Part shown: positions 1,921 to 53,600 of the stretch, piece after piece
How positions within the stretch are numbered: position 1 is the stretch's first letter
How the letters are laid out: each line of letters starts with the position of its first letter
Source of the DNA: Cheilinus undulatus
Taxonomy: Eukaryota > Chordata > Actinopteri > Labriformes > Labridae
DNA: 64,000 bases
Direction: 5' to 3'
NCBI RefSeq assembly: GCF_018320785.1
Contig: NC_054869.1
Span: forward strand, 14,890,698 to 14,954,697
Translations under genes and position numbers: made by a program
The notes under the pieces: model-generated
The model's input: the letters and a program-made list of their open reading frames with translations, nothing else
Told to the model about the DNA's origin: nothing
Databases searched by the model: none

Positions 1921-3165
1921 TTGTTGACGTGGATTTTGAGTTACAGTGGTGTTAGAAAATTAGATAAAAAGTGTTTTTGATTAATTTTAACATTGTGGTC
2001 GCATGATTCAGATATTAGCCTATTGCAGTGATCTGCTGTTAAACTATCGTTAGCCTTTTGCTTTTAATTAGCCTGCCAATTCTCATAACCTGATGAAATA
2101 ATACACATGGTTAATTCACTGTAAAACCATAGACTGTATATAGTGTGAAACCATGTCAGCAAAACCCACCGGTAGTTTAACTTACTTGTCCCCTATTAAG
2201 GGTTCTGATAGTAACTATAGCCAGCTAACAGCGTGTTTCACACTATATACAGTCTATGGTTTCACAGTGAATTAACCGTGTGTATTATTTCATCAGGTTA
2301 TGAGAATTGGCAGGCTAATTACAAGCAAAAGGTTAATGATAGTTTGACAGCAGATCACTGCAATAGGCTAATATCTGAATCATACGATCACAATGTTAAA
2401 ATTAATCAAAAACACTTTTTATCTCATTTTCCAGCACCACTGTGACTCAAAATCCGCGTCAACAACATCAACAAGCGTGTCCGAACGTGTGCATCACTTT
2501 TAAGTGTCCTCTGGAAACACTTCCGTTGTGTTGCGGTGTATTTGCAGCGCGTTTTTCTAATGTGTTGTGGTCTATTTGCAGCGCGTTTTCCTAATGTATT
2601 GTGTTGGTCTTTGCAGCGTGTTTTCTAAATGCTGCGCATGTGTTGTCAAATTGATGAAGATGTTTTCTTAATTTGCTTGTGTTTTGTCTTTTTGCATGTG
2701 TTTTCTTAAGTTGCAGTGCTGTGAGCTCTCAGGGCCACCGTATATTCCTCCTCTTAACTGCACCAGAAATATGCAGAAAACAGAATGCGAAATACATTTG
2801 CTCTTTAAATATAAACAGAATTGCTATCCAACCCTATAACAGGTGTCTTAATAGCAATACTTTGTGCTGTGTAATGTTACTGTACATATTAGCAAGGTGC
2901 ACTAGCCTAGCATGCTAGTTGTTACTTGACACCCCTGCTTTGACACTTAGGTGCAAATTATTTAACTTAACACATTGTTATTTACTGACAAGGATCCATA
3001 ATAATGGTGAGAGAGTCTCTTGCGCTTCAACCCCTCCACTCGTGGAGGTCGGTGCTCACAAAAGGACCAGCAACAGTCAGAGGTGTTTCAGTGGGTAAAC
3101 CAGGTAAACCCAATGAAGAAACTGGAGCACACGAATCACTTGAGGACGTTTAATCAGGTGCAGAG

Positions 3166-3204
3166 GACTAACGTTTCGACGCGCACTGCGTCTTCATCAG
3201 AGTC
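3166..3204 (-). ncRNA. hammerhead-ribozyme-like motif in left PLE arm
   Basis: Reverse-strand twin of the motif at 5717-5755 with the same bases in core and stems: GACT at 3204-3201, CTGATGA at 3200-3194, stem II, GAAA, CGTT, and AGTC at 3169-3166. It lies downstream of the RT/endonuclease frame on the same strand, where it could cut the element's own RNA. Confidence 0.75.
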
Positions 3205-3463
3205 AAACAGTACTGGTGTTGTTTGAAGACCTTAAATCCCCTCCTGAATAAAGAGTTACTACACTGATTGGTTGTTTGAGGTGGGACGTCAGCCCGCAGT
3301 GGACCAATACTGTGACAGCACTCATGTCAAACTATCTATTCCAAACAGGAATATGTGAACATATTTCACAACAAATATATACAAGTATACAATATTTACA
3401 AAATACATAGACCGACAATGTAGACGGTAAAATGTAACATACTGAGCGTAACAAATCCACATA

Positions 3464-5200
3464 TTACAAAAAACATGAGAGGCTAAGTTCTTCATTCAGT
3501 CCAAATGGTTCAACTGTGTTAAGGGTGTATATGCAAAATGCCTCCCTCCTGAGGAGCTTGTTGACAATGTCACCACCCCTCAGGGAGGGAGAGATTTTCT
3601 CAATGCCCCAGAAGCGGAGGGTCGCAGCGGAGCCGTGATTTACCTGTTTGTAATGTCGTGCTATTGCGTAGTCCATATTGTTGTAGCGGATGGCTGCTTT
3701 GTGTTCTGCTATGCGTGCTTTGAGGGGACGTTTAGTCTGACCGATATAAACCATACTGCAGGGACATTTGAGCATGTAGATGACATGTGTGGTACTGCAG
3801 TTTATAAAAGAGTTTATGGGAAATCTTTTACCCGTTCGGGGGTGACAGAAGTGTTTGGTATCAGAGGAGTTTGAGCAATGAGCGCAGTGACCACACCTGT
3901 AAAAACCAGAGGGAGGAGCAGGCAGCCAGGTGGCTTTGTGAGGGGGTTGTGTTGTTGTGTGGACAAGTCTATCTCTAAGGGAGCGGGCTCTTCTAAACGA
4001 GATGAGAGGGGGTTGTTCACAGATCTGCTTTAGGGCTGGGTCACTCTGTAAAACATGCCAGTGTTTCATGATGGTGTGTTTAATTTGGCCAGCAATGGGG
4101 GAGAACTCCGTGGAGAAACAGGGGCGTGAGGATGTAGGGGGGCGCTGTGATTTCTCGAGGAGGCGGGGTCTATCGGAGCGCACCGCCCGCTGATAGGCTG
4201 CTTTGATGACGTCTTCCTTGTAGCCTCTGCTCAGAAAGCGCTCACTTAGCTCCGCTGCTTTGCATTCAAACTCATTGTGTGTACTACAATTTCTTTTCAG
4301 ACGTAAAAACTGTCCTGTTGGGATGTTATTGATGAGTTTTTTAGGGTGATGGCTGTCGGCTCTGAGGAGTGTATTTCTGCTTAGTGGTTTGCGGTAAATT
4401 GTGGGCTCCAACCCTGCTTCGTTGTTTTTATAGATGGTTAAGTCCAGAAAGTTTATCTTTTCTTCTGAATGTTCAATGGTGAAACGTAGATACTCTGTGG
4501 TGGAGTTAATATAGGCCAGAAAATCATTGAGTTCGTCGGTAGTGCCAGTCCAGAGAAACAGAATATCATCTATGTATCTTTTCCAAAGTGAAATCCTGGG
4601 GAGAAATGAATTATTATTCGCATTGTGAATGTATTTATCTTCCCAGAACCCCATGGTTAAGCAGGCATATGATGGTGCGAAAGAACTACCCATGCTCACC
4701 CCTTGTTTCTGTAAATAATAGGAGCCTGCATATTGAAAGTAGTTTCTAGACAGGACAAGTTCCGTTAAGGTGAGCAAGAATTCATTAGGCGGAAAAGCAT
4801 TGGAGCGTGTGTCTAGATAGTATTTAAGTGCTTCCGTGCCTGCTTCGTGCGGGATACATGTGTATAGGCTTTGGACATCACAGGTAACTAAAATGAAGTC
4901 CCTGTCGCTTTTAAATGATCCCAAAATGTTCAACACATCTGTGGTATCTCCTAAGTAGGAGGGGAGATTTAGCACAAATTTCTTGAGGAAAAAGTCCAAA
5001 TATTGAGAGAGGTGTTCAGTTAGACAGCCAATGCTTGATACGATTGGTCTCAGAGGTGGATTTTGTAGTGATTTGTGAATTTTTGGAAGGCCGTAAAATA
5101 CGGGACAGACAGGGTGTTTAACTGACAAGAATTCACTTTCGTTTTCTGTTATCCAGCCTCTTGAAAAACTCTGTTTTTCCTGTCTAGAAACTACTTTCAA
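3464..5200 (-). CDS. Penelope-type reverse transcriptase with C-terminal GIY-YIG endonuclease (N-terminally truncated)
   Basis: A 578-codon uninterrupted frame. Reverse-transcriptase landmarks in order: FYGLPKIHK near residues 35-43; motif A with D108 in VTCDVQSLY; motif B QGVSMGSSFAP (166-176); motif C YIDD (209-212). A cysteine/histidine linker (C436, C439, C442, H450, C452, H453) precedes the GIY-YIG domain (VIY at 473-475, VYIG at 484-487, then R495 and H500). PLE reverse transcriptases copy their RNA into chromosomal DNA; the GIY-YIG nuclease is thought to nick the target. The frame lacks the usual N-terminal part of the family. Its first few residues (MKVVSR) are not native: they come from the abutting inverted copy, so the ATG at 5200 is accidental. 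Poseidon- versus Neptune-type assignment is unresolved. Confidence 0.92.
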   Translation of the reverse strand: MKVVSRQEKQSFSRGWITENESEFLSVKHPVCPVFYGLPKIHKSLQNPPLRPIVSSIGCLTEHLSQYLDFFLKKFVLNLPSYLGDTTDVLNILGSFKSDRDFILVTCDVQSLYTCIPHEAGTEALKYYLDTRSNAFPPNEFLLTLTELVLSRNYFQYAGSYYLQKQGVSMGSSFAPSYACLTMGFWEDKYIHNANNNSFLPRISLWKRYIDDILFLWTGTTDELNDFLAYINSTTEYLRFTIEHSEEKINFLDLTIYKNNEAGLEPTIYRKPLSRNTLLRADSHHPKKLINNIPTGQFLRLKRNCSTHNEFECKAAELSERFLSRGYKEDVIKAAYQRAVRSDRPRLLEKSQRPPTSSRPCFSTEFSPIAGQIKHTIMKHWHVLQSDPALKQICEQPPLISFRRARSLRDRLVHTTTQPPHKATWLPAPPSGFYRCGHCAHCSNSSDTKHFCHPRTGKRFPINSFINCSTTHVIYMLKCPCSMVYIGQTKRPLKARIAEHKAAIRYNNMDYAIARHYKQVNHGSAATLRFWGIEKISPSLRGGDIVNKLLRREAFCIYTLNTVEPFGLNEELSLSCFL

Positions 5201-5843
5201 TATGCAGGCTCCTGTTATTTACAGAAACAAGGGGTGAGCATGGGTAGTTCTACGCAATAGCACGACATTACAAACAGGTAAATCACGGCTCCGCTGCGAC
5301 CCTCCGCTTCTGGGGCATTGAGAAAATCTCTCCCTCCCTGAGGGGTGGTGACATTGTCAACAAGCTCCTCAGGAGGGAGGCATTTTGGATATACACCCTT
5401 AACACAGTTGAACCATTTGGACTGAATGAAGAACTTAGCCTCTCATGTTTTTTATAATATGTGGATTTGTTACGCTCAGTATGTTACATTTTACCGTCTA
5501 CATTGTCGGTCTATGTATTTTGTAAATATTGTATACTTGTATATATTTGTTGTGAAATATGTTCACATATTCCTGTTTGGAATAGATAGTTTGACATGAG
5601 TGCTGTCACAGTATTGGTCCACTGCGGGCTGACGTCCCACCTCAAACAACCAATCAGTGTAGTAACTGTTTATTCAGGAGGGGATTTAAGGTCTTCAAAC
5701 AACACCAGTACTGTTTGACTCTGATGAAGACGCAGTGCGCGTCGAAACGTTAGTCCTCTGCACCTGATTAAACGTCCTCAAGTGATTCGTGTGCTCCAGT
5801 TTCTTCATTGGGTTTACCTGGGTTACCCACTGAAACACCTCTG
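5179..5843 (+). repeat. inverted, internally deleted second PLE copy
   Basis: Read on the plus strand this encodes the RT segment SRNYFQYAGS through GVSMGSS, then jumps directly to YAIARHYKQVN downstream of the GIY-YIG core and continues to the same C-terminus (SLSCFL) and 3' arm. About 340 codons are missing between the two blocks. The junction with the main copy is near 5178 and shows a few bases of shared sequence (TCCTGTCTAG). The arm from 5250 mirrors 3078-3671. This could arise by a template jump during target-primed reverse transcription. Confidence 0.85.
5717..5755 (+). ncRNA. hammerhead-ribozyme-like motif in right PLE arm
   Basis: Core order matches a type I hammerhead with minimal stem III. 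Stem I strand GACT (5717-5720), CTGATGA (5721-5727), stem II GACGC (5729-5733) closed by a 5-nt loop with GCGTC (5739-5743), GAAA (5744-5747), CGTT (5748-5751), stem I return AGTC (5752-5755). All five stem II pairs and all four stem I pairs are Watson-Crick. The predicted cleavage follows GTT at 5751. Stem III is only A-CG-T, which is self-complementary and could form 4 bp in a dimer. Hammerhead motifs are known in PLE pseudo-LTRs; activity here is inferred. Confidence 0.75.
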
Positions 5844-5857
5844 AAGGATCCATAATA

Positions 5858-6589
5858 CCCTTGGCCCTTTTCCTGCATGTGTATCTGAGGGCTATTTATC
5901 CACCTGTATGCTGAAATGAAGACCCAAAGAACTTTAGCTTGTGTAAGCTTGACATGCAACTTATTAATAAGCAATACTAATACAAGTCTTGAAAATGTAA
6001 ATATGCCAGATTATATGCAATGGCTAATTTCAGTCTATTGTTCCTTGCAGATGTTGCCTAAAAAATATACGCAAAAATGCAAACTAAGGTCTCATTGATG
6101 CAAATGCATAAATGAATAAACATAAAAAGTCTTCAAGAAGCATGCAGCACAAATCCTAAAAGTAGCTTTGCACATAAGTTGCGTCATCACTACACATGCT
6201 GTCAAGGCCGTTATCATAACTTAATGGTGCTGTTTTGTTTTTTCATGTCTGCTTTGATTTTAACCCTTTCAACTGAGTTTTAAAGTGCTGTATGAGTGGC
6301 ATTCTCTGACTGTAGATGGTTAGCTTTCCATACATTGAATTTAGGGGCTGTGTCCACATTTTTGTGCTACAATTAGCAGCAGCTATTTTTTCATACAAAA
6401 TCAGTGCTTATGGGTGTTTTCAGTATTTTCAAGGCTCAGTGTAAAAGCACAAGAGCGCCCCTGGTGTCAGCTGTTTTTTGTTGTCACAATGCCCAATGAT
6501 CATGTGCACACTGCATCTTGCATCCACACTCATTTTTCAGAATGTGCACAGTCGACTCCCCACTCAGGAGGTGCACTGCAGTCATTGTG
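5858..6589. other. intergenic, nothing recognised
   Basis: AT-rich sequence between the PLE target duplication and the next Tc1-like end. No conserved frame or repeat structure seen. Confidence 0.4.
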
Positions 6590-16680: not shown

Positions 16681-17232
16681 GATCTGACCTTTGATGACTT
16701 ATTGATGAAATACTTTGAATTTGTTGCTGTTTTTTTCCTGTCAAAAATCTGATTGACCAAAAACGTTACTGATCAGCTACTTAAAACAGCATCTAATCTT
16801 GACTAACAAATCTACCTTGTAATTTAGATATCCAACAAGGTCGGAGTCCCATTGTTTTAACAATCAGGGCTTTAAAAAAATAAGCTAGCTGAATAAGGGT
16901 GATTGACAATTTAAGTATGCTGTGTCAGACAGAAATGTCCCAGCTCTGTGAGCACTGAAAAGCAGCCTTTTCTGCAGGAACATAACTGTAACTGGTGACT
17001 AAGAGTTAAATTGTGTCCTAATGAAAGAAAGTCATTGAACAGGGAATTTGCTTTTGACAGAACTGAAAATGAGGCATCAATAGGTAAGAATTAGAGAGGA
17101 ATGTGCAAACATGAAGCCTGGTCACTGGCACTGTGAAATACTCAGCCCAGAACAGTGTTCCATATAATCCTATAATATTTATGTATGTTAATCATTGCTT
17201 CTCCTTTCCAGGTTGACAGCAGCCCTCCGGGG

Positions 17233-20200
17233 ATGGAAGACACAGGCAGCAGCTGGTCAGCAGAGCTCACCACTCCCTGCACCATGCTGCACGAGCTGAA
17301 CGGTAACGACAGCGGTCAGGTGTTCGAGGTGGCTCTACAGAACACCTCCTCTAAGCGCAGCAGCCCTCAGTTTGTTGGCGTAGAGCTGCTGCAGTCCTTC
17401 AAGCTGCTCATCATCCCCTGCTACACCCTGGTGGCTCTGGTGGGCGTGTTCGGAAACTACCTGCTCCTCTATGTCATCTGCCGCACGCGCAAGATGCACA
17501 ACGTCACCAACTTCTTTATCGGGAACCTGGCCTTCTCTGACATGCTGATGTGCGCCACGTGTGTGCCCTTCACGCTGGCCTACGCTTTCAACCCCCACGG
17601 CTGGGTGTTTGGCCGCTTCATGTGCTACCTGGTGTACCTGATCCAGCCTGTGACGGTTTATGTGTCTGTCTTCACACTCACGGCTATCGGTGTGGACAGG
17701 TAAGGGTTAAAGAGCCAAAGGGATGTGGGCAGACTGTATAAATCAATCTCCTAGGGGGTTTCTGTAGAGCCTCATCATCATGCATCGTGTGTTTTACTAT
17801 CACATTCTGTAGGGTGCCACAGGCTATGCCAAAACTACAAGAACAACGATGATCCTCCTCAGGCATTAGTCAAAGTTGTCACTCTGAGATGAATAATTCA
17901 CAGAGCTATGAATTCTAATGTGTATAATCAAGAGTATAAACCGGGTTAAACCTGAAGAAATGCTTCTAAGATTAAAACATCTCTTCTCAGCACAGTTAAA
18001 GGCTTTCTGTGTTGCAGCTCTTTTCAGATCAAAACAAATCTGTGCATCAGACACACCTTCCCATGCCCTCCTCCCCCACCCCTCCCATCCTGTTTCACTT
18101 TCAAGCTTCTGTGTGGCGGTGAGAGCTGATAAACATGATAAATGGACTTGAGCTTATGTAGCCCTTTCTAGTCTTCTGCATACTCAAAGCACTTTTCACA
18201 TCACAGATCACATTTATCAATCACACCACATTCACACCAGGCTGCTATGTAAACCAACAATGTATGCCAACAAAGTAAATTCCCCCACATTGCCTCAATC
18301 TGAACATTCATCACATAGATGGAATGAGACTTGTAAATAGTCATCATACAGTATTTCAGCTAAACTGATAGTAGTAATGAGCATTGCATTCTTGGGATGC
18401 ACAGTATCATATCAGGATCAGCAGATATGAACATTTCTGCCGATATTTGCGACTGATACAGTACCCATAAAAAGTATTCAACCTCTTCAAGTCAGTGCTG
18501 TGATTGCAGCTGAAGGTGCAGCTACAAAACACTGACTCTGTGTGGATATGTCTTCAGGCTTGCACATCTGGACACTGCTATTTTACTCCAGTCTTATTTG
18601 CAAAACTGCCCAAGCTCTGTCAGGATCAGACATGAAGGGCCCTTTTGAAGCCCTGTCTACTGGACTGAGGTCCGTGCTTTGACTCAGCCACTCCAGAACA
18701 TTCACCTTGTTGTCCTTAAACCATTTCTGTGTAGCTTTCTCTGTGCTTCAGGTCATTGAAAAGAAATCTCTCAGCTCTTGCAGACTGAATAAGATTGTCC
18801 TCCAGGATTTTCCTAGAATTTGACACATTTATTTCAACCCTTACCTTTACAAACCTTCCAGTAGGCTGCCAAGAAGCATCCCCACAGCATGATGCTGCCA
18901 CCACCATGCTGCACAGTGGGGATGGTGTGTTTGTGGTGATGTCCAGTGTTTTGTGTCCACTAAACATAGCGTCTTGTCTGATGGCCAAAAACATTTTGGT
19001 CTCAGACTGAAGAACTTTCTTCTCCTTCTCCATGGAGTCACCCACATGCCTTTTGGCAATCTAGTTGAAATTTAACATGGCCTCTCTCACTAGTCTTCTT
19101 CTTGCACGGTCTCTCAGTTTGTGAGGACGGCCTGATGTAGGCAGATTTACTCATGCGCCATATTCCCTCCATTTCTTGATGATGGTTTAACTGAACTCCA
19201 GGGGATTTACAGTGCCTTGGAAAAGTGACTGACCTAATTCAACAGAGGTATGGCCAGTTGGTGCTAGTAGTCTCACAGTGAAGTGGGGATCACCTGAGTG
19301 CAGTGAATATGTCTCAAGTGATTGTAGTATAAAGACACCTGCGTCTGGAAGGTCCAGTCACCAGTTAATCAGTATTCCTGGCTACCATTACGCCATGACA
19401 ACAAAGAACTCTCCAAGCAACTCAGAAAAGGTTACTGAAAAGTGTAAGTCAGGGGATGGATGCCACTTTGTTGAAATTTTTTTTTTTCACTTTGACTTCA
19501 AAGAGTTTTTTAACACTTTTTTTGGCAAAAAAGCCAAAGTATATTGACCATGATTGATTTATAAAATCAATAAAAGTGTATAACATTCAAGGGGGTGAAT
19601 ACTTATTATAGGCACTGTACCTTAGGAGGAATGTTGTTAATGATAAAGTTTGTCCCTTTAGCTCAGAATTAAAGAAGTTACTTTTCCTTCTGATTGATTG
19701 ATTTTAAGGTTTATTTATTTCAGCCAGTTAAAAAGTGTCAGAACGGTTGTAGATGTCAGGTCTAAGGTCAAGTCAGCTGAATTTCAACCTTGAAGTCATG
19801 CCTCGCAATCACTAGAGTATTTGTCTCTTTAGAAAGGAGAACAGACTTCTACAAACCTAAGAAAAGACTTTCACTCCATCATGACACCACAGGACACAGC
19901 TTTGCACAGTGTAGGCGAGGCCGTCTCTCTTCGCTTCCAAGGTTACAGTGTTAACAGCTGGAGACGAAGGGTTTCATAGAAAGAAAGGAATACAGGTGAA
20001 ACAAAGACAAGCTAGAGGAAGCACCACCCCTAAATACTCAAATGTCCCTTATTAATGGGTTCTATCAATGAGCTGTCATTTATACAAATGTAATGTTCAA
20101 TGTGGTACAAAATAAATGACTATAAAAGACTGTTAATTATATATTAAAACAGTGAATAGTTCATCCACAGTCATAAGAGAGAACATCTTCAGTCAGCTGT

Positions 20201-21558
20201 GTCTGCTTTCAGTATTCCTTAGAAAGCGTCTGATAAGATCTGCATTAAGTTTGAGGTCTTTTTGTTATCTATTTTAAGAAAAGGTAGCAGCTGACTTAAA
20301 CACCTTTCTCCTCTGATTTGCTCTGACCTTTAGAGCAGACAGAATGAAAAGTTCCTGGGACTGCATACTTAAGTATACACCAGGTATAATGGCTTTGAAT
20401 GTGCTCTCCAGAACCTTTAATGGACCTTCAACAATGTATCAGAGTTTCTTTGAAAAGTGGGCCTAAGTGCAGATCCTCTTTCAGAACTCTTTCGTTTGAG
20501 TTTCTGAGCTTTTGAGTTGAGTGTAAACTTGTCTGAATAGAGTATTCAAAGTTTGGGTGTGTTTATCAGACTGTACAAATGTTCTGCAGGGCTCCAAGGT
20601 CCCATAACCATGAGCTGTGCTTGCGAAGTCTTTCACTTCTCTCTGGGTCGACCTTGTCAACAACTGGCAGAGCTGAATGTTTTTGTGAAGCTAAAGCAAA
20701 CTTTTCTATTGAGTGCAGTCAATTAGACATTGGCTACAGTCTGGCTCTTTTGTCTGTGGAGCTTACAGATCTGTTGTTGACAAGCAGGGATCATGAATGC
20801 TGTTCTTCTCCCTGCAGACACCAGAGAGCAATTAACTTCAGGTTGTCATGCTTCATTTGTCACCATCTGTTTGGATCATTTATATAATGTAAATTAACAC
20901 GGACCTCCTCTTTGTTTCTAGATACTACGCCACGGTTCATCCTCTAAAAAAGCGCATCTCCGTCTTGGCGTGCACCTACCTCCTGTCCGGGATCTGGCTT
21001 TTGTCATGCGGTCTGGTGGCCCCGGCTGTGGCTCACACGTACCACGTGGAGTTTAAAAACGAAGGCTTCACTATCTGCGAGGAGTTCTGGATGGGCCAGG
21101 AGAGGGAGAGGCTAGCGTACGCGTACAGCACCCTCTTCATCACCTACGTCCTGCCTCTGTCGGCGCTCTGCATCTCCTACCTGTGCATCTCCGTCAAACT
21201 GAGGAACTGTGTCGTACCAGGACACCACACGCAGAGCCAGGCGGAAGCCCAGCGCATGAGGAAACGCAAGACCTTCCGATTGGTGAGCCTGGTGGTGGCG
21301 GCATTTGGCATCTGCTGGATGCCCATCAGCGTGTTCAACGTGCTGCGAGATATTGACATCGACCTGATCGATAAGCGCTACTTCTTGCTCATCCAGCTGC
21401 TCTGCCATCTGTGTGCCATGAGCTCCTCCTGCTGTAACCCTTTCCTCTACGCCTGGCTGCATGACCGCTTTCGTGCCGAGCTCCGAAAAATGTTCACCTG
21501 CCGCCGTCGAATCGGGATCTCGGCGAATAACTGTGCAACAGCCAGCGTGGTTCTGTGA
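17233..21558 (+). CDS. prlhr: prolactin-releasing peptide receptor-like GPCR (PRLHR family), two coding exons
   Basis: Class A GPCR at the plasma membrane, predicted to bind an RF-amide peptide of the PrRP / C-RFa type. Coding exons are 17233-17699 and 20922-21558 (GT at 17700, AG at 20920-20921); the phase-2 junction falls inside the DRY motif (DR|Y) and gives 367 residues, close to the usual 370 of this family. The ATG at 17233 is preferred because a splice acceptor ends at 17211; the in-frame ATG at 17185 would lie in the intron. Visible landmarks: N-glycosylation sites NDS and NTS in the N-terminus, GNYLLLY and SDMLMC in TM1/TM2, TM3 cysteine (FMCYLVY) and its ECL2 partner (TICEEFW), [14 protein letters not shown] in TM6, NPFLY in TM7. 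The C-terminus ASVVL resembles the PDZ-binding tail of mammalian PRLHR. Linkage to rab11fip1 and adgra2 suggests the PRLHR2 paralogue rather than the direct mammalian PRLHR orthologue; NPY-type receptors are less likely. Confidence 0.9.
18388..18457. mobile_element. 5' piece of the GATGCA-ended MITE family
   Basis: CTTGGGATGCACAGTATC and CAGATATGAACATTTCTGCC closely match 13800-13870. The match stops at the left terminus of the Tc1-like element that follows, which may have inserted into it. Confidence 0.45.
18458..19619 (-). mobile_element. Tc1-like transposon with both termini, inside the GPCR intron
   Basis: Terminal inverted repeats: left ACAGTACCCATAAAAAGTAT, right (reverse-complemented) ACAGTGCCTATAATAAGTAT, with TA at each edge as expected for Tc1 targets. 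Degraded transposase text on the minus strand (18716-19045) includes [16 protein letters not shown]-like and [12 protein letters not shown]-like residues, the remains of the region around the second catalytic aspartate. The same family occurs at 47675-49150. The copy is internally rearranged (a second TTTACAGTGCCTTGGAAAAG near 19206) and inactive. Confidence 0.8.
19620..20921. other. remainder of the GPCR intron
   Basis: AT-rich intron DNA without recognisable exons. A good polypyrimidine tract and TTTCTAG acceptor close it at 20921. Confidence 0.5.
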
Positions 21559-26940: not shown

Positions 26941-29900
26941 TTACACAGGCTTTGCAGACTGGAGAGACTGCAGGATTGTGGGTTTCTCCTCAATGACACG
27001 GACAAGCAGGTTGTCAATGTACTCCTCCAGCTCTACGATCTTAGCGTCCTTCTTGGACAGGTCGGTCTGCTGCTTCACCACCAGTGTGATCAGCTCCTCC
27101 TGTGTCAGCTGAGTGTACGGTCCGCTTTCTACAGAGTCTCCCACCTGAGAATACAGAATAATCAAAGGCTAAAACCCTCCTTCATTCACCTCCCTCCTCA
27201 TCCTCTCAGTATAGCAAACCTTGAACCTGTGGTTTGTAGATGTCTTAAGCAAGTAATTATGGTAGTTGGAAACTGAGTAAAACTAAAAATAAGATGAAAA
27301 TAATGCAAGTTTACCTTTAGATGTTTTGGTCGAAGTGCTTTTGCAAAATCTAATACCAACTTCTGCTTTTCAGAGCAGACTGATATAAGATTACTGATGA
27401 GAATGCTCCTAGGAGGCTGCAATAGCTCAGCCTGCTGAGACTTGGGTTGGAAACTAGTGGGCTGAGAGGTGCCGGTTCACCAGATGAACAGATCAAGCAG
27501 TTGATCTAGATTCCGACGACAGTGCAGGGGTCTGGGAGTCTCCATGAAACAATTTAAGCATCAAACTTGTATTTCCCTGCAATCTGATGAATATTTAGGT
27601 AACAATTTGTTGTGGTAAGAGATCCTTGCAGGGTAAAACAACTAGCAAAACCTGTGAGTGGACCTGTAGGTTATTCATACTACTGGGTAATACCTAGTAA
27701 CTACAATAAATATAAAAGGAAAATGTAGAGTTCATTTTATTACAGGGCTCCTGCACACTTCTAAAAATCAAATTTAAGACTTTTTACACTTTTCAAGGAA
27801 CCACAGGAACCTTGTATTAAAAAAAAATCTACCGCTTCATGCATGATGCTTTTATTGTTGCCATATATAATCTGTTATTTTTCACACTGTCATTTAAAAA
27901 GAGGGATTCCACTCATGCAATCTTTTTTAAATCTGTTATTTTACTTTTAGTTGATGCATCTTGTAAGTCTGAGCTTTCTTTGATGACAAACTGAAACACT
28001 GATGTGTTACACGGAGAACATTATTTTTGTGAAATCAAAAAATGCCAAGTTGCTGAGTATTACATCAGTAAAAAGCTATCAAGATGCGTTGCTCCTCCTG
28101 AGCCAAGCGGAAGAGGGGGACGCATGTACTGAGGAGAACTCCTTATGAATGTGTGCAAATGTGACATGAAACTGAAGGTTTCAGGTGAAGGTGTTTTGCT
28201 GACTGTACCACGGTGTTTTCCAGTGGTTCTGAAGCATATTGTCTCATGATAATGATGACAGCTGAAGCTTGTGGAAAGCTCTGAGCCAGCCTGCTCTGCA
28301 TCCATTTCTGTCAGACTTTGGCAACGGCTGCAACAAGTGCATGACTGTGCATTGCCACATATGTCCTGTCATGCATGTTTACTCAGGTAAGGTGTCTGCC
28401 TGTACCAATCATGTGCTTAGTAGTGAAAATAATTTCTGTCCTTTGGGAATACCACAGGAATCCTGTGACCTGGGGGACTCCTGAAAAAAATGTCATCCTC
28501 TACCCTTTATTATTCCTAAAATAAAGGATATATGGGATACATTATGAAAGGGTAGAGCTTTTTGTTTCAACTCTTGAACCAAGAGTATCAGATTAAGTCA
28601 AAGTGTGGTGAGACATTTTCATGCTATTATCTCAGAAATCTTCCTACAGGATGTCAAGGTTAAATGTCAGCAGGTCTTTCCTGCTGTCAGTTTATCATTT
28701 ATGAAATATTTATCACTGTTTATGCCAACACAAACGTACCTGAATCTTCCCTGCTGTAGTCTCACGGGCCTTTAGGTCTTTCACAGCGGGGCTCTCAGCT
28801 GAGCTCAAGGGCTTCACAGGATGAGGTCTGGAAGGAAAGGACATCCATTATAATAAAGCCCCAAAAAAAGCAAAAATATGCACAGAAACCTCACAGAGAA
28901 TAACACAAGTATATTAAAGTGGAGCAAGAAATGAAACAACTTCTTCCAGTTTTACAATTTTTTCAGAATTTTCCCACTGTGATCAAAGCTCAATGTCTGA
29001 AATCAAACTCAAAGAAGGCCAAGACATCAGTTTTCAAAGTATTCACACACAGCTCACATTAAGTCCCAACACCATCAGCCTTTCAGTTCAACAACAGCAG
29101 CAGCCCTTACTTCTTATGCAAAGTCTACAAAAACATTCCACGAATGTATGCTCTGTAAGCGGCCTGTTCAATCTCACCTGCGTGCAGATAAGGCTAGCCC
29201 ACCTCCATTGCTATTCTGAGCACTGACAGGCTGAACCTCAGAGGGTGAGATCCACACTCTCACTGGTGCCTTCCCCCCTGACACACCTCCTGCCTGCGAT
29301 GCTGGCTCCTCCATGACTACAGGGAGGGGCTGCGAGGAGGTTAGGGTAAAAGGGTCCGCTCCAAAAGCCTCGTCTCCTCTGTAACGGGAGGTCGGTGGTT
29401 TCACATCAGCCTGAGCCTTTGATGTTGAGGACTCATCTTTTGTGTTGAGGCCTCCATTAGCTGTTGTCATGGTCGTGTCATATGCGGGTTCTTGTCGAGA
29501 TTTGGAAGTCTTATTATCCAAGTAAGACAGGGGAGAAGGGGTCTGTTTCCGACGGCTGGAACCGCTTCTTAGGAAATTAGGACTGATGTCATCTTTTTCC
29601 CTGTTCTCAGTTCGTCTTTCTGAACCACTGCCATTGAAATTAGAAAATGGATCTGTTGGGCTCTCTGTACTAAAAATGTTATCAAGATCTTCTGGTGTTA
29701 TGCCACAATCTTCAAGTCTGGAGTCTTTTTGGACACTGCTGCCAAAAACATCTGAAGCTTTGCTCTTTTCCGGCGGTGCCCATGGGTCTTTGGTGATGAG
29801 CTCAGTACTAGGAAATGGGTCAAACTCTGCAAAGCTCTCCTTTAAATCTTGGCTTAGATTAGAGCTAGTCTGGATATTACTGCTCAAGTTTTTGTCAGGG

Positions 29901-32900
29901 ATTACTGACACAACAGCTGAGTCGTCTTCTTTCCCAGATTCTTTGCCAGCAGCTCTCTGCCTGGGTTTTGCAGTGGGTGGCTCTTTGTTCACACCGACTT
30001 GTGTTTGTCTTTGATCATCTTGTGTTATATCTCGGTCTGTTTGGCTGGTTGGTCTAGTTAAATTCACTGCTGCAGGTGAAGGGTGTAACACCTTCCTTAC
30101 TCCATCCCTGGGCTTCACGGGGAGACCTTCCCTGCTGTAAATGTCATTATTTATAGGTAAAGGAACTGGAGATGGGTTAGGCCTGATTGGAGGTTGGAGA
30201 GCTGTAGTCTGGCTCCGTCTTTGACTTGACTCTGATTGCAGAGGTGCAGGTGCCACTGACTTTGGGGGCGCTGGAGCTGCTGCTTTTTTTGTAGACACAG
30301 GTTTGGTCTCATGAGTTTTATAAAGATCCATAGCAGGTCTCTCCTGTATTTGTGATGGCCTGGTTTTAGGCTCCTCTGGGCCATCCACACTCATTTCTGG
30401 ACCCACACACTCAGGCAAAGAGTCTCTGTTTCTCTGATTGACCTCTGCAATGATGTGGTCCCATCGAGTTTGGCCTTGCACTCCGTGTCTCTTCTGAGGA
30501 AAAAGTGTGTCATAATCAGGAAGTGGTAGACTTGGCTTGTTACCTTGCTGTGGTCTATCTACATCTACATATGCAGGATTGTTGAACTCTCTAGCAGGCA
30601 CTTGGGTCCCAAGTGCGGGCTGTGGGGGAGGCAGAGGGGCTCTTTTCTTCTTTTCTGCCATAGTGGGTGAAGATCCCCCAGAGGACAAATCCTCTGTGCT
30701 GCCACGAGGAGAACCAGGCGGGCTTTCACTTAATTTCAGAGGATCCAAGGACAAGTGGAGGTTGGTAGTGTCAGGGGACTCAGATGGGACACTAGAGAGG
30801 GTGGACTCAGTGGAGACTGGGGAATGGCTCAGCTGACTTGGGGATTGGGAGTCAGTAGGTTCAGACTCCAGAGACTGAGATGATCTGCCAGGGAGTGAAA
30901 ACAAAGGCCTACAGGTCAGTGTGACCATCACCTCAGGTCATTTCCATCAAGGTACAACCCGTCACCATTTTAGCTTGAATCACAAATGTCAACATAACTT
31001 TAAATCTAATTTTTCAATAGAGCTTTTCACAGTTCAATTTCCCGCCAACTTTTCACAACTTGTAGAATTTTTTCTCTACAAGGCTGACACAGTTCAATAT
31101 CATGAGCTGATCAAGACAAGGAGCTTCTTTATGCACATCTGAGGCGGTTACTTATGCTATTTTTAGCTTTGGCTCGCCCACATGTGACTGTCGAAGACGA
31201 CAATGTGGCGTCCTCACTTTAACCCAATCAAACTTACATTATTCTATGCAATTCAACATACAAAACAAAATAATGACAATTTAATATTCAAACTAACTTT
31301 AAATACTTAAACTACTATCTATCTGTATCACACAACCTTGACCATGACTTGTTTAAGACCAGTGAAAATGGCAAAAACAGACCCCTTACCATTGTGAAGG
31401 AAATGTAACTCCAGTCCACAAACACCAACAGAAAAATCTCCAAACTAAATCTGACTACACAAGATATCCTTGAAGAAAGTAACACTGTGGCGCAGTCACT
31501 CTTTATGAGCCCCGCTCAGTCTACTACCTGTTCCACAACATCCTCACAAACACAAGCCACACCCAGATTCCCATCTGCACCGGGCCCAAACTGGTCAAAC
31601 TGGCCCATCAACCCCAGGGTTGAATTCAAAGTTTTTAGTAATTCAAGATGGTCACATGCTTGAGTCAATGTGAGCAGAAACAGGATGGAAAGTTGTGAAA
31701 TTACCCAGTTTCGGTGTCAAAAGACATGGTGTTAGGTCATATTTCATAATGTAAAACCTGTTTTGGTCTCTTAAATTCCATTTTATTTGCTTTGTGCCTC
31801 TTGCTTGTTCATGCAAAACAATGAAGAAAATGACAACACTCTTCTGAAATTAGCATAAGCTCTTATTCTGGATGAATTAAATGTAAACAGTATGTGTTGT
31901 TTCAATTCAAGCTTATTGAAGAAAGTAGTCAGTATGCAGTAACACAAAGAGAAAGAAGCCTACCTGGGTTTGACTGCAGACACTTTAGCGGTGCGGTTCA
32001 GAAAGACCATAGCAGAGGGAGGCTGTGGGTTATGGTTGGACTTCTGAAGATCAGCTGGACTTTCATTCATGCTGACTCGAGGATCTGAGCTGAGGGGGAT
32101 GTCCTCAAAGGGGTTAGTGGAGCGGTGGGACAGTGGTGTATCAGAGTCAGCATGCAGGGTTGGTGGCAGCTCCTCTTTAATGAATGGTGGGACTTCCTCC
32201 TTCTTCTCCTCCTTCTTCTTGATGATTCCAAACAGAGAGGAGAGTCTCTCTGTCATGGAGGCCTCCTCCTGTTGTTTCTGCTCATCAGCTTTACGACTCT
32301 CCTCTTCAAGCTTCTGTTTTTCTGCTGCTTCCCGCATTCTGAGTTCTTCCTCTTTCCTCCTCCTCTCTTTCTCTTCCTCCTGTTTCTTCCTCCTTGCCTC
32401 ATCCTCCAAGAATCGTCTCTTCCTCTCCTGCTCTTCCTGTAGTCTGCGCTCCTCTTCCTCCTGAAGTCTTTTGGCTGCTGCCTTGTATTTCTCCTCTTCC
32501 TCCAGCCTCTTGGCCTCTGCCAGGCGCTTCTCCTCTGCCTGTCTTCTCTCCTCCTCCTCTAGATGGCGCCGTTGCTCCATCATTGACCTCTCTGAGGATT
32601 CTATCTGTAGAGAGGGGACAGGAACATCTACAGGGACTTCAGTGAATTTGCGAACGTCCTCCACAGATCCCCGGCCTGAGCTGTTCAGACTGAGAGTAGA
32701 TCCACTCTTGGACTCCTCCTCGGTGTAAACATGGCTGCCATTGATGCACAGGTTGTTTAGGTCACTGTTGCTCTGCTTGTTGCGACCTAGTAAGGAGAAA
32801 GGACCCTGGGACACCTTGCTGTCAGAGCTGCCTGATCGCTTGTGTCCCAGGAATTTGAATTTCTTTTTTCCTGAGGGAGGAGAGACAGCGGAGCATGATG

Positions 32901-35900
32901 TCAGTGTTGACATGCAAAACACCATTATTTAACTTTCACTGTGCTGCAGAGAACCGATGTGTAAACATACAATGCACACAGAGTAAAGGGGTTAAATTAC
33001 CTTCAGGGGAGTCGACATTGAGACCAGATGAGCGGCTGCCGCTGAGTGATGAATTCTTCTCAGGAAGAGTTCCAAGAGTTGACATGGACTGAGAGATGTT
33101 TCGCTGCAAGTTTGATTTAGGAGCAAAGAGTGTTTTGAGCTTAGATTTCTTTTTGGTTCCTGGGAACTGATTGAGTGACTGTGCGTCAGGCTCTCCTTCA
33201 CTGTCGGTGAGGACCTGGCTGACAGAGGGAACTATGGCTGAAGCAGAGTCGGAGAAACCGTCCTTTTTCTTTCCACGGACTTTGTCCTTCAGCTTGGAGA
33301 TGCGGGAGCGCGGTTTGTCCTGCATAGAAAGGTCAAACATGCTCGCTGACATGTTGTTTCTCAAAAAGATGATATCCAGCAGCACCTCCCCACGTGCCTT
33401 GTCCTCTTTTCCAGTTTTGTCCACCAGCTTGAACCAACTGCAAATAAAAATAGATAATTAGATTAGAGTACATCTGAATTCAGATCTTTAAAATCAAATA
33501 GATACGTTATCAGGTTAATATGAATCCACTAATTAGTAAGACTTGTTTTCTCTAACACAAAACAAAAACAGTAAGACATTTTCCTCTTGATCCTGATGCA
33601 TTTTTTTAATTGTTAAAAATGAAAATCATCATTTTTAGACTCTTAAAATTGTTCAACTGGTTGATTCCTTCTCTACACATTAAAGCAACTGAGTCCAGTT
33701 GAAAATAAATACAAATGAATTTTTTTCTGTTTAAATTGATTTCTAAGAATATTTTTCAAATTGGTGTTTTGTGCAAAAATGTACAAATAGGCAGGTCTAA
33801 CAGGGACATTTTTTTCTATCTGGTATCCATTTCTTGTCCACCTGGATGAGGCTGATGATGGGTGAGAAGTGTCAGAAAATCAACGTATGGCTAATTTTAA
33901 TGGCTGACAGCAAATTTCCAAAATTTTGGTTTATTTCGCTCCTACTCCTCATCTATGTCTTTCGTGGTGTTTGCTTTGGTTTCATTTTTCAAATGCAAAA
34001 AGCTACATATCAAACATTTAAAAATGCAAAAGCACACACTTTCTTCCCCTTAAATTTTATGTTTTACTCCTTTAAATTTAGCATTTCCAGATTAGCCATA
34101 TTGTGAGAATGTGTGGGGAATATTTAAAACCATGTTCAGACAAAATATACACCAACATATAATTCAAGTACGTGTTTAATTAGAGAAAAACACAGGCTAA
34201 ATGATGTACAGAACTCCCAGTTTGCAGGATTTATGGATGTATTGTTCTCATACTGTCTACATGTCAAACAATCAAACAATTGTGAAATCCAAAGTTAGAA
34301 AGAAATGGAAACATTTAAGTAGGCATGTAAAGATGCATCAGTTTAACATCAGTACTGGCAGATCTCGGCCCTACTGACAAACATTGACCACCAGTGGACT
34401 TTAGAAAAAAGTGGAAGAATTTTCTTTTATGACTACAACCAAAATCATTAATCCAAGAAATAATAAAAATCCTCAAAGAATGAAATAATTATTCTTGCAA
34501 ACCTGCACTCAAAACTGAATTTTGGTTCCACAGAAATGTCATGTTATTGGTGTTAAAACCAAAACGAACCAAAAGCGACACCAAATTATGTTTTGGTCTT
34601 GAATTTAATTAAATAGAAATCTGACCTGTCATCATTGCATGGGAAACATAGAACATTTCTTGAAGTGGGATTGAATAAGGTTAAGTGCATGTTGTGCATC
34701 AAAAAACTATATGCTATAAATAGCCCTGTATAATAGTCCTTAACAGGTCTGACAGTAAAGGCTTGAGATTTGTTGTTTATCTGCTTTGTCTCGTCAGACT
34801 TGAGGCTGATAGGTGTCATTAACTGTGAACAGCTTGTTCCAGTTCCTGTTTAGAGCTCCACGCCAGCCACAGATACAGACTAACTATCACAGCCTTGTTT
34901 ACTCCCACTAATGTGCACTGTGTTGGTCAGGATCAGCTTTAGCTCTTATTGTCTGCAGGGGAAAGGTAGGAGTGTTCTGGAGAGACCTTTCTAAAACCAG
35001 CCAAAACAACCAATTAGAGCCATTACATGCAGACGCTTCCTGCCTGTACAACTAAAGCCTTGCTATTATTAGACGGCTAATACAGTGACAGGGGTGCCCA
35101 TTATGACAAGCTTTCTCCCTTTTGAACACTTTTATTCCACGGTAGACCCCTCTAGCTCTTCCATTTTTTTTTTACCACTGAGAAGTGGTAGCACACACAT
35201 CAGTGCACGGAGATCACTTTTTCAACATTATTTAGACAGCACAGCTCAGCAGAACTAATGCTTTAATATTGGAAAAAAATACAATAATGCAACCAAAAAA
35301 TTCCAAATAACAGGAGTAACTCATATACAAACATTTATCTCCTAACTTTAACACTTAGCTATACATATATGATGACATAAACAGAAAGAGCTAAAATATT
35401 TCTCTCTGATATCATCATTTTTTATTCACCTCAAAACTTTCCACCAATTAAAAAAACAAGTTCTTTAGTGCATGTGGTCTTTCTAGACCTGGCAATTTAT
35501 GTCATATAAATGCTGCAATGAGCTTTAATATGCTTCATTTCTAATTCAAAGTCCACAAAACAGAAGTAATTTTACAATCTTTTAACAAAAACAAAAGCTC
35601 AAATATTAATAAGAAATACACGGATAAATCTTACACATATGAATACTATGCCAGTAAACCTGTATTTGCATTCTTCCACAATCAATCTTGCGTTCTGTGT
35701 CATACCTAAAAACTTTTGGTGTTATTCCTTTCGAGGAAATAATCCTTCCGCAGCAACCTTCCTCAAATATATCCAGACATCCAGCCTTCATGTCAGACAG
35801 TGACATTCAGTCTTGAGACTGGTGGTGGGCATTAACTTTGCACCTCTGTGAGAGAAGAATTCCTCTGTCCAGGTTGAGGAATGGACAGTGAGGTGGAAGG

Positions 35901-50690: not shown

Positions 50691-53600
50691 TTACACTGTG
50701 GTTTCACTTTTCCACAAACCACTCTTCATCCCAACGGAGCTCTGTGATTGGTCGGTGCCACTCATGTCCTGCTCCAGCTCCAGCACTGAATTTTTCAGGG
50801 TGCCATTTGGAGCAGCGGCCCCCGGCACAGTGTTAGTGACACTGTTCAAAGGGTAAGAGCAGCGCTTAGTGTCTCGCTCTGCAGCAGCTGCAAGTTTCAA
50901 ATTGTCTCTGCTGGCGCAACGTCTCTGAGCCCCGTGCATGGCCACTCTGCTGGCCATAGAGGGCAGCAGGGGGAAAGGTTTACGACTCCCACTGCTACCC
51001 CCATCACTCCCCTCTGAGGGGCTGGTCGCCACTGACTCCCCAGCACGCTTCCCATTGGTCAGTGGGCTGGCCTGGGTCTCTGAGAGGCTGTGATGGAGGC
51101 TGCCGTTCTCACTTGTAGCCTGTTTGTAAACCACATGTGAAGAACTGAGGTGATCTAACCCAGAGGGTCCTAAAGCTCCCAGGCTGCCTCCTCCTCCAGC
51201 AGTCCTTAGAGCTTTGAGGCGATAGTGACCCCTGCCCTCACCTCGATGGTGATACTGGCTGCTCCCTTGTTTAGTTCTGCTCCCCACTTTCCTCCTCTGA
51301 GGGTGCAGTGGGGCTGCAGAGTTAATGGTTGGCAGAACATTGTTTGTGGGCTTAGTGATGTTGTCAGTACTGGTGCTGGTGTTGTTGCTTGCAGGGGGAC
51401 GGGTGGTGTTGTTTGGACTGTCTTGAGCTACCTGCAGCAGGTTTGTGAGTTTGCAAGGTCCAGGCCCCACGCTGCTGATTCCACTTGGTGTGGATGATGA
51501 CCGAGCTGACGAGGAGTTATGAGACTCAGCAGGCGGATGGCAGTTAATAAAAAGCTGTGATCCCTGCTCTGAGGTCTGCACTCCACTCAGAGTGGTGCAG
51601 GTGTGTGTGTAAGTGGACATGGGTTGGGAGCGGCGGTAACCTGGACAACATGCGAGCCATGACGCCTGTACATCCAGGCGTCTGAAGCAGTGATGAACCA
51701 CCAGAAACACCCCCAAAACTGTAGCAGTAATCCCATAGAGACTGCTGAACAACAAGCTGGAGCGACCCGTCAGCCACATCGCCATCGCCCCACAACACCA
51801 CAGAGCCACAAACAGGAAGTGGGTTCCCACCAGCACCACGAACTGTGTCTTCAGTGAGTACTGGTCCTCTGGGGCCACAGCAGGAGTTATAGGCCCCACC
51901 ACAGAGTCTGTTGAGAGGAGGCTGGTGCTTCCTGCCAGCGCAGGCTGGCTCTCAGTCACAGGGGTGGACAGCGTGGTTCCTGTGCATTCTTTGGCTACAC
52001 GGTGCCTCAGGCGGACCCCAGTGCACAGGAAATAGATCCAGGTCACCAGCACCACCAGGCCAGCAGGGACAAAGAAAGAGCCCAGACTGGGGCGCCACAA
52101 GAGCCAACAGCTGCAAGAGGCAGAAAAAAAGTCAAGAGGGTCAGTGTGAAATAAAGAGACGTCTGTGAATTCATATCACAGGAAAGTTTTCACTTCACCA
52201 AACAAAACAACAAGAAGTCAAGAGATCAGGTGGCTCAAGTTTAAAGGCAGAAGTACTCACTAAGGGCTGTTGTCTCCATAGTTGTTGACATTGACAGCGG
52301 CAGTGATTCCACAAATGATAAGAGGAACTCCACCCGCTATCAAATAGAACCTTAAATAAGAGAGAAACATATCAAACATAGTTTCCCCGCTGTAGATTAA
52401 AATGCAGAGCAGCTTTTGTTTTATTCTACAGGATACTGTTTGACCTTTAGCTGCTACAATGTTTTTAAAGTGAGCATGTCAGTGTCATATTCCTCTTTGT
52501 GTTTTTATGTCTCTCAGGCTGTCTATAATCTGTGTGATTCTCTACTCTCAGTGGGCAGAGTGTTACAAGGGTCACTATGGGCTCCGGGAGCCTGTGATTT
52601 ATTGCTGACTGTTCCCATGTGGCTGAGCAGACAACAAAGAGAGGGTGGGAGGGCAGTGGCACAGTGTATGACAGGATCAGAGGGGCAGAGGAGGGAGGAG
52701 ACATAGAGGGAAAGACAGTGCAACCCTTGAAGCACCCTCCTCAGATTTATGATGGCCCCCTCTACTTCTGTTATGTCGGTTTCATACATTCCGCCCTCCG
52801 CCTCTTTTGGTTCTTATTGACTTATAGCGTTTTCATGCCTTACAGCAATACTCTGTTATGTCCATCCAAGTTTCTAGGGCACAATGGTCCACTTTGATTG
52901 CACACAGTCTGGGTGGCCATGCAACAGACTGCCCACATCTGTCTGAAACATCTACGGTAGTGACAGCAAACAACAATGCCCCAGTGCAGGAAGTGGGTGA
53001 AGGTGATTTGTGCTCACTGACCTGAGCATAGGTCGCTGAGTAGGAGGAGCAGGGGGCTCTCCTTCAGGCTGTCGGGGCGTTCTCCACACAGCTTCTTTGT
53101 AGAGAACCCTGGCACTGACTCCGATCCACAGCAGGGTCGACAGAGAGGAATAATGCAGCGCAATCCCCACCTGTCAAACAGCGCACTTTGATAAGAAATC
53201 ATGCTTAAATTCCACATATATAATGAGGAAAAATGTAAAATCATCACTTACTGCTTGGCAAACCACTGGGTAGCTGGTCAAGCTTATACCTCCTGCATAA
53301 ATAGCTGTTGTCATCGCGATGTGGAAGCAGGTGTTCAGTAATGTGTGCCAGCTTTTTCTTGATATGTGAATAGTACTGTAAGAGGCACAGAGGAATATAA
53401 TTACAATGTCAAGCAAATAAAAAACAGCAGAAGAAGTCTGATTCTGCACGTTTATGGCCGTACCTGTGGTGAAGTATGTGTGTGATGATGATGGTAAAGA
53501 GGCAGAGGAGGAGCAGTGCAGTGCAGGCATACACCACAGGGTGGAGCATTCTTATAGAGATGGGTGTGGAGTTAGGAAAGTCAGGCACCTCCTAGAAGAC

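What the first reader, a model, noticed from the sequence alone, without database searches (positions are those of the whole stretch)
3004..5857. Young Penelope-like element with two inverted hammerhead-like ribozymes
Seen: 14-bp perfect target duplication, 578-codon intact RT plus GIY-YIG frame, ~594-bp inverted arms, and in each arm a motif with complete hammerhead core order (GACT, CTGATGA, 5-bp stem II, GAAA, CGTT, AGTC). Known: PLEs carry hammerhead motifs in pseudo-LTRs. Inferred: the self-complementary ACGT stem III favours cleavage as a dimer, and because the two arms are inverted a read-through transcript could fold the arms together and mask both ribozymes. That would be a built-in on/off arrangement.
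Basis: partly seen in the sequence, partly recalled or inferred. Interest (0 to 1): 0.7.

Follow-up and report, generated by a model that had tools for sequence, protein, structure and literature searches.

The report
Two-sided Penelope-like retrotransposon insertion
A jumping gene of a known kind seems to have copied itself into this probably fish chromosome from both broken DNA ends at once, which would explain its mirror-image arms; the RNA motif in each arm is known from this kind of element, and the proposed on/off switch is not supported.

Summary
The anatomy is real: a 14-bp target duplication, 595-nt inverted arms (591/595 identical) and a hammerhead-like motif in each arm. It is one Penelope-like element (PLE) insertion made of two head-to-head copies. 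Copy A (minus, 5173-3004) lacks the N-terminal part of RT, so the ORF is open but not intact. Copy B (plus, 5175-5844) has a 1010-bp internal deletion. PLE hammerheads, dimeric cleavage and inverted pseudo-LTRs are already published. The core has one extra A, as do the 72 motifs listed genome-wide. The on/off idea is not supported: each read-through transcript carries one sense and one antisense motif. What the family adds: of 46 head-to-head pairs in 90 stretches read, 38 have a target duplication; in 36 of these one arm ends at a short site (S) and the other about 73 nt farther on (T); two are T plus a shortened end; none is S/S or T/T. Arms share subfamily haplotypes in 23 of 24 testable pairs (5.8 expected); target edges are symmetric. 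I read this as two-sided target-primed reverse transcription, one start site per DNA strand. 5' ends pile up just before the motif (25 of 76), not at its cut site (2 of 76).

The parts
2990..3003 (.). left target-site duplication AAGGATCCATAATA
3004..5173 (-). copy A of the PLE, 5'-truncated; its 3' end at 3004 is the long (T) end
3004..3076 (-). 73-nt 'tail' present in copy A only (between the S and T ends); holds a CCTCCAC/GTGGAGG hairpin
3077..3671 (-). left inverted arm (end of the nuclease coding part, 3' UTR/pseudo-LTR)
   Evidence: 591/595 identical to the right arm
3166..3204 (-). hammerhead-like motif of copy A; predicted cut between 3170 and 3169
3207..3208 (-). inferred RNA 5' end (query position q464-465), 31 nt downstream of a TTTAAG-containing box
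   Evidence: 5' ends of 25 of 76 family copies fall here; box position
3464..5173 (-). open frame, 569 codons plus stop: RT core (YIDD) and GIY-YIG-like nuclease motifs; N-terminally truncated; Trp to Cys in the nuclease part
5175..5844 (+). copy B, head-to-head with A; its 3' end at 5844 is the short (S) end
5175..5251 (+). first block of copy B (matches 4758-4682, 75 of 77), joined to the arm across a 1010-bp deletion with CT microhomology
5250..5844 (+). right inverted arm
5717..5755 (+). hammerhead-like motif of copy B; predicted cut between 5751 and 5752
5844..5857 (.). right target-site duplication (base A 5844 shared with the end of copy B)

Best explanation
This is a fairly recent insertion of a Penelope-like retrotransposon made by two-sided target-primed reverse transcription. 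A symmetric endonuclease dimer makes a staggered cut of about 14 bp. Both recessed 3' ends prime copying of element RNA: one starts at site T, the other at site S, 73 nt nearer the RNA 5' end. Each cDNA runs toward the RNA 5' end; the two cDNA ends are joined head-to-head and the overhangs are filled in. The result is two 3' ends facing outward, inverted arms, one 'tail' and a 14-bp duplication. The hammerhead-like motif lies at the 5' end of the inferred RNA, and again in the 3' pseudo-LTR of a tandem transcript; it is carried along in both arms and would act only when two sense copies meet. Shown by sequence: the anatomy, the target duplication, the S/T pairing across the pairs read, symmetric target edges, haplotype match of arms, the 5'-end pile-up. 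Inferred: the cut geometry, that S and T are reverse-transcription start sites here, use of one RNA (or RNAs of one source locus) for both strands, the joining step, the RNA 5' end, and any ribozyme activity.
For: TSD and outward-facing 3' ends in the window. Family: 38 of 46 head-to-head pairs are S/T, 0 S/S, 1 T/T; of the 38 with a target duplication 36 are S/T and 2 are T plus an end at q573 or q577. P of 36 of 36 mixed if ends were independent: 6e-12. Control for calling duplications: 27 of 2070 mismatched flank pairs, against 38 of 46 real ones. Duplication lengths 14 (20 of 38) and 15 (11 of 38). Target edges mirror each other: A 0.82 at -2 and 0.58 at -3 on the S side, T 0.89 at +1 and 0.71 at +2 on the T side, n = 38. 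Arms share subfamily haplotype in 23 of 24 testable pairs against 5.8 by random pairing (with one CpG column left out). 5' ends at q464-465 in 25 of 76 copies. In-vitro work on an anole PLE: both strands cut and extended, two adjacent internal start sites, predicted dimer (PMC11167929, parts 1 and 2 of 4 and passages). Rotifer PLEs: inverted pLTRs, TSDs, a tail on one of them (PMC3846280, passages).
Against: 44 of the 90 stretches show no such pair. Ten of these hold an inverted partner ending before q560 and show no target duplication at those ends, though in one of them (m7), as in the paired stretches m51 and m54, a candidate duplication lies beyond a short stretch that reads by eye as an S end. 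Seven look one-sided with a candidate duplication, four T and three S (weaker duplications, no control). Of the 46 pairs, 7 have an end that is neither S nor T, 5 of these without a duplication. In vitro, the anole protein showed no start-site difference between strands. The haplotype test gave 15 of 24 before I left out a CpG column (q539) after seeing it; 17 arm-arm differences had both bases common in other copies; and only 22 of 48 arms have no closer arm than their partner. The 17 of 17 for 'young' pairs is partly built in, since they were picked for similarity over the same columns. S-started arms more often reach farther 5' (22 against 9, 7 ties), but in the window the T-started copy is the longer. 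Tested in one family of one genome.
Confidence: 0.75

Rival explanations
1. One reading: the inverted arms are a built-in switch that hides both ribozymes in read-through transcripts and so regulates cleavage.
For: In the predicted minimum-energy fold of a transcript through the element, all 39 motif bases pair with the antisense copy, on either strand.
Against: Each transcript has only one sense motif, so there are not two ribozymes to hide and no dimer in cis. Any inverted repeat would fold so. Inverted pairs are common in the family (46 of 90 stretches), and arm lengths run from about 22 nt to at least 668 nt, the length of the query.
Confidence: 0.04
2. Snap-back: one cDNA folds back on itself at its 3' end and copies itself, giving the inverted arm.
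For: Makes inverted repeats from one template, so arms would match; self-priming, on an antisense template, was proposed for rotifer PLEs (PMC3846280, passages).
Against: Such a copy should run to the T end or into the target rather than stop at S, as it does in 36 of the 38 pairs with a target duplication; the S ends sit on the duplication. Copy B in the window has a deletion relative to A.
Confidence: 0.1
3. Twin priming, or recombination between two separate insertions, produced the inverted structure.
For: Head-to-head copies with a microhomology-bridged deletion resemble inversion junctions seen with LINEs (recalled). One T/T case (C24) has the same 20-nt flank on both sides, as a genomic inverted duplication would.
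Against: Twin priming does not duplicate the RNA 3' end on both sides (recalled). Chance juxtaposition does not give target duplications around 38 of 46 pairs (control 27 of 2070), nor one S and one T.
Confidence: 0.06
4. The hammerhead-like motif is a relic or variant without ribozyme activity.
For: Extra A in the core (72 of 72 in the list, by reading; 68 of 68 by script in the stretches fetched). A non-hammerhead fold of the 39-mer is predicted slightly more stable (-11.9 against -10.2 kcal/mol), and for two molecules the best predicted fold (-30.0) beats the hammerhead dimer (-18.5) (no tertiary contacts in the model). Within the family the motif is about as conserved as its surroundings (0.937 against 0.943, 0.925 and 0.939 per column; non-CpG columns 0.962 against 0.950, 0.925, 0.954), and 2 of 855 pair cells show a both-sided change. 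No 5'-end pile-up at the cut site.
Against: Layout and palindromic stem III persist at a locus with 48% protein identity although the stem sequences changed. A natural hammerhead with an extra A is known from chrysanthemum chlorotic mottle viroid (figure legend and reference title, PMC3705267; its place in the core recalled). The anole PLE ribozyme was active with protein present, and not without (PMC11167929).
Confidence: 0.3

Closest known systems
Penelope/Poseidon-type PLEs; anole PAc (Frangieh et al. 2024, PMC11167929; parts 1 and 2 of 4 read)
   Same: RT plus GIY-YIG frame; hammerhead motif near the start of the ORF; two adjacent internal RT start sites with a 'tail' between them; both DNA strands cut and extended
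   Different: Here the stretch between the ends is 73 nt (30-40 bp tail in their text) and one tail per two-sided insertion is close to a rule; their in-vitro start sites did not differ between strands
Bdelloid rotifer Pen2a_Av and relatives (Arkhipova et al. 2013, PMC3846280; passages)
   Different: Target duplication about 14 bp here against 8-10 bp in the passages seen; they favour self-priming on an antisense template for head-to-head repeats
PLE-associated small hammerhead variants (Cervera and de la Pena 2014; Lunse et al. 2017; titles and review passages only)
   Same: minimal stem III, proposed dimeric cleavage, location in pseudo-LTRs
   Different: One extra A after A9 here; whether the published variants share it I could not check (papers not held)

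Membership tests
Penelope-like element | reverse transcriptase domain in the frame | tested here: met
   Pfam RVT_1 E 5.3e-4 (20.2 bits, under its 29.6-bit cut-off; 2.2e-4 for the N-terminal part), YIDD motif
Penelope-like element | C-terminal GIY-YIG endonuclease in the same frame | tested here: inconclusive
   VIYML...VYIGQT...RIAEH at residues 464-491 (motif reading recalled), PHROG endonuclease family 1111 at residues 456-499, E 0.0031; no Pfam GIY-YIG hit; structure model unusable, mean pLDDT 36
Penelope-like element | pseudo-LTRs in direct or inverted order, with 'tail' | tested here: met
   inverted only in the window; family
Penelope-like element | target-site duplication | tested here: met
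   38 of 46 pairs in the family
Penelope-like element | telomerase-like RT phylogeny | not tested
   no reference PLE or telomerase RT set was aligned
Canonical type I hammerhead ribozyme | core CUGANGA directly followed by stem II, then GAAA | tested here: not met
   extra A between core and stem II; strict descriptor finds nothing, relaxed one does
Canonical type I hammerhead ribozyme | curated covariance model match | tested here: not met
   no Rfam hammerhead, gathering for the window or E up to 10 for 2950-5900
Hammerhead-like PLE variant | stems I and II paired, core GAAA, short self-complementary stem III | tested here: met
   second PLE locus
Hammerhead-like PLE variant | self-cleavage | not testable with these tools
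   needs RNA in vitro

The most novel reading that the evidence does not exclude
PLE insertion is an obligately asymmetric two-strand reaction: one RNA in a protein dimer carries two start sites, S and T; one site serves each cut DNA strand, so every complete two-sided insertion has exactly one tail. The RNA used starts just upstream of the hammerhead and is not cleaved by it.
Probability: 0.45. Interest if true: 0.7.

Novelty: new member of a known kind. Interest (0 to 1): 0.5.

Why it matters
How PLEs insert is still open; the 2024 in-vitro paper says additional steps are yet to be validated. A one-S-one-T rule, symmetric target edges and matching arm haplotypes would explain the inverted pseudo-LTRs and the 'optional' tail in one step, and give predictions that could be tested in the published in-vitro system. 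It also bears on the ribozyme: the 5' ends recorded in the copies read do not sit at its cut site.

Tried and rejected
Rfam gave no hammerhead. Viral and prokaryote collections and plasmids gave no relative; the four viral and two prokaryote pattern hits do not look like hammerheads by eye. PDB searches gave nothing significant (one hit at E 1.9). NCBIfam gave a weak RT match (Drt3a, E 0.013). The structure model without an alignment is unusable, so no fold search was run. The strict hammerhead descriptor failed because of the extra A. Within-family covariation is nearly silent: 2 of 855 pair cells changed on both sides, both at one stem II pair, 41 changed on one side, much of it at CpG positions. 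3' flanks of two further PLE loci, alike to each other (L128, L129), hold no hammerhead in the 404 nt fetched. A test of the S/T rule in a second PLE family (query L127) was asked for 14 times and never answered. The C24 T/T pair looks like a genomic inverted duplication; it is kept in the 46.
Full report
What is there. The window holds a single insertion between two copies of AAGGATCCATAATA (2990-3003 and 5844-5857). Inside are two copies of one element, head to head. Copy A lies on the minus strand from about 5173 down to 3004. Copy B lies on the plus strand from about 5175 to 5844 and matches 4758-4682 of A joined to 3671-3077; the 1010 bp between are missing and the join has a 2-bp CT overlap. 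The arms match at 591 of 595 positions and the extra block at 75 of 77. The outer end of A reaches 73 nt farther than that of B. No other piece of the element was found in the window (blastn and tblastn).

The protein. The minus-strand frame has a weak Pfam reverse transcriptase match, the YIDD motif and GIY-YIG-like motifs, and a weak PHROG endonuclease match at residues 456-499. It is open but truncated: the TTG at 5200 lies in the antisense of copy B, and three related frames without stops in the same genome are 809, 816 and 833 codons, stop to stop. At one position of the nuclease part A has Cys where B and another copy have Trp. 'Intact' is therefore too strong.

The ribozyme-like motif. 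GACT CTGATGA A GACGC-loop-GCGTC GAAACGTT AGTC occurs once per arm. A relaxed descriptor finds only these two places in the window and 1 in 200 shuffles; a strict one finds none. Genome-wide the pattern CTGATGA-N8-30-GAAACGTYRGTC occurs 72 times, against 1 for the pattern read backwards. All 72 have the extra A by my reading of that list; a script confirmed 68 of 68 in the stretches fetched. A PLE locus at 48% protein identity carries TGCC CTGATGA A GGCC-loop-GGCT GAAACATGTT GGCA: other stems, same layout, same extra A, again a palindromic stem III. Two other PLE loci show none in the 404 nt fetched. Within the family 55 of 95 copies keep the core and all nine pairs; the motif is about as conserved as its surroundings (many copies were selected by the motif itself), and only 2 of 855 pair cells changed on both sides. 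Predicted energies do not favour the hammerhead, alone or as a dimer. Rfam does not recognise it. So it is hammerhead-like and resembles the published PLE variants said to cleave as dimers (title in PMC7761336), but activity is untested and the canonical core is not met.

The on/off idea. A transcript of either strand through the whole element has one sense and one antisense motif, and in the predicted fold all 39 bases pair with the antisense copy. There is no transcript with two sense ribozymes to mask, and a dimer cannot form in cis. I found nothing that makes this a regulatory device.

Where the inverted arms come from. The genome (1.17 Gb, 46 contigs; probably a ray-finned fish, inferred) has many relatives: 57 matches to the last 668 nt of copy A, with only 40 of 419 candidates scored, and 116 copies of a 36-nt stretch downstream of the motif (not all listed). 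I read 90 stretches chosen by these searches. Not read: 7 of the 57 places, 4 of the 72, two of those listed, and those that it did not list. The stretches hold 153 copies. Their 3' ends fall mainly in two groups: S (q585-612, 54 copies, peak q594-595) and T (q655-668, 74 copies, peak q667-668); 25 are elsewhere. The query ends at q668, but the flanks beyond T ends differ from copy to copy with few exceptions (two duplicated copies, m21 and m75, and repeated tails in m24), so these are true ends.

Forty-six of the 90 stretches have a head-to-head pair with both 3' ends beyond q560: 38 S/T, 4 T with another end, 2 S with another end, 1 T/T, 1 with neither. With a target duplication there are 38: 36 S/T and 2 T with an end at q573 or q577. 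No S/S occurs. The T/T case has the same 20-nt flank on both sides. Independent choice of ends would give 36 of 36 mixed with probability about 6e-12. Duplications are mostly 14 or 15 bp (20 and 11 of 38); mismatched flanks gave 27 calls in 2070 trials. Of the other 44 stretches, ten have an inverted partner that ends earlier and show no duplication at those ends. A wider look at stretches without a confirmed pair shows, by eye, a short S partner inside a candidate duplication in m7, m54 and m62 (m54 is one of the 46). Seven look one-sided with at most 29 nt between duplication and 5' end (four T, three S; weaker duplications, no control; m75, a tandem repeat, not counted). Some stretches are too short to show a far partner.

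Two further tests. Rebuilt target sites of the 38 pairs, turned so that T is on the right, show mirrored edges, AAN at the S side and NTT at the T side; the target edges do not explain which side gets T. Arms of one insertion share subfamily bases: 24 of the 38 pairs span the variable columns in both arms; over seven columns 15 of 24 agree (random 4.2). Leaving out a CpG column, a choice made after seeing the result, 23 of 24 agree (random 5.8). Among 17 pairs with few differences all agree, which is partly built in. Arm-arm differences had a private rarer base in 53 cases, a rare one in 18 and both common in 17; 22 of 48 arms have no closer arm than their partner. This fits one RNA, or RNAs of one source locus, serving both strands, without proving it; RNAs of one subfamily active at one time would give part of it.

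5' ends. Among 76 copies containing q513-548 with a 5' end in q400-513, 25 begin at q464-465, 2 at q502-504 (the predicted cut) and 8 anywhere in q499-507. In stretches fetched by the motif-independent pattern the first two numbers are 10 and 1 of 36. A TTTAAG-containing box begins 31 nt upstream of q465. I infer that the RNA starts just before the motif and is mostly copied uncleaved, in line with the anole result that ribozyme mutants do not affect insertion in vitro (PMC11167929).

Comparison. Inverted pLTRs, target duplications, truncated copies and a tail optionally on one inverted pLTR are described in rotifer PLEs (PMC3846280, passages). Two internal start sites, a tail between them and extension of both strands are described for the anole PLE (PMC11167929, parts 1 and 2 of 4 and passages). 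I did not see the strict one-S-one-T pairing stated there or in the listings of my searches; key papers are not held, so it may be known.

Verdict. The element is an ordinary member of a known kind. The family-level pairing rule is the part worth following. It rests on one family in one genome; the search in a second family did not complete.

Noticed in passing
679-2742: Neighbouring inverted-repeat element: outer arms 679-927 / 2458-2742 and a nested palindrome 1918-2151 / 2235-2468; looks like a DNA transposon, about 250 bp from the PLE.
   Followed up: no
17185-21558, 29174-33424, 50691-52100: Host exons resembling a neuropeptide-type GPCR (+), a Rab11-FIP1-like protein (-) and an ADGRA2-like receptor (-); names recalled from the translations.
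   Followed up: no
L127 (G000 C16:43312670-43313370): A divergent PLE (48% protein identity, 809-codon frame) carries a hammerhead-like motif with the same extra A and a 6-nt palindromic stem III.
   Followed up: partly
genome G000, e.g. C23:29068200-29069700: Many short family copies run from just before the motif (q464-469) to the S or T end, some as tight head-to-head pairs.
   Followed up: partly
C21:35375228-35379478 and C11:44946700-44948200: Two differently shaped family insertions share the same 14-bp target sequence AATTGAAATCAGGT, perhaps one repeat hit twice.
   Followed up: no
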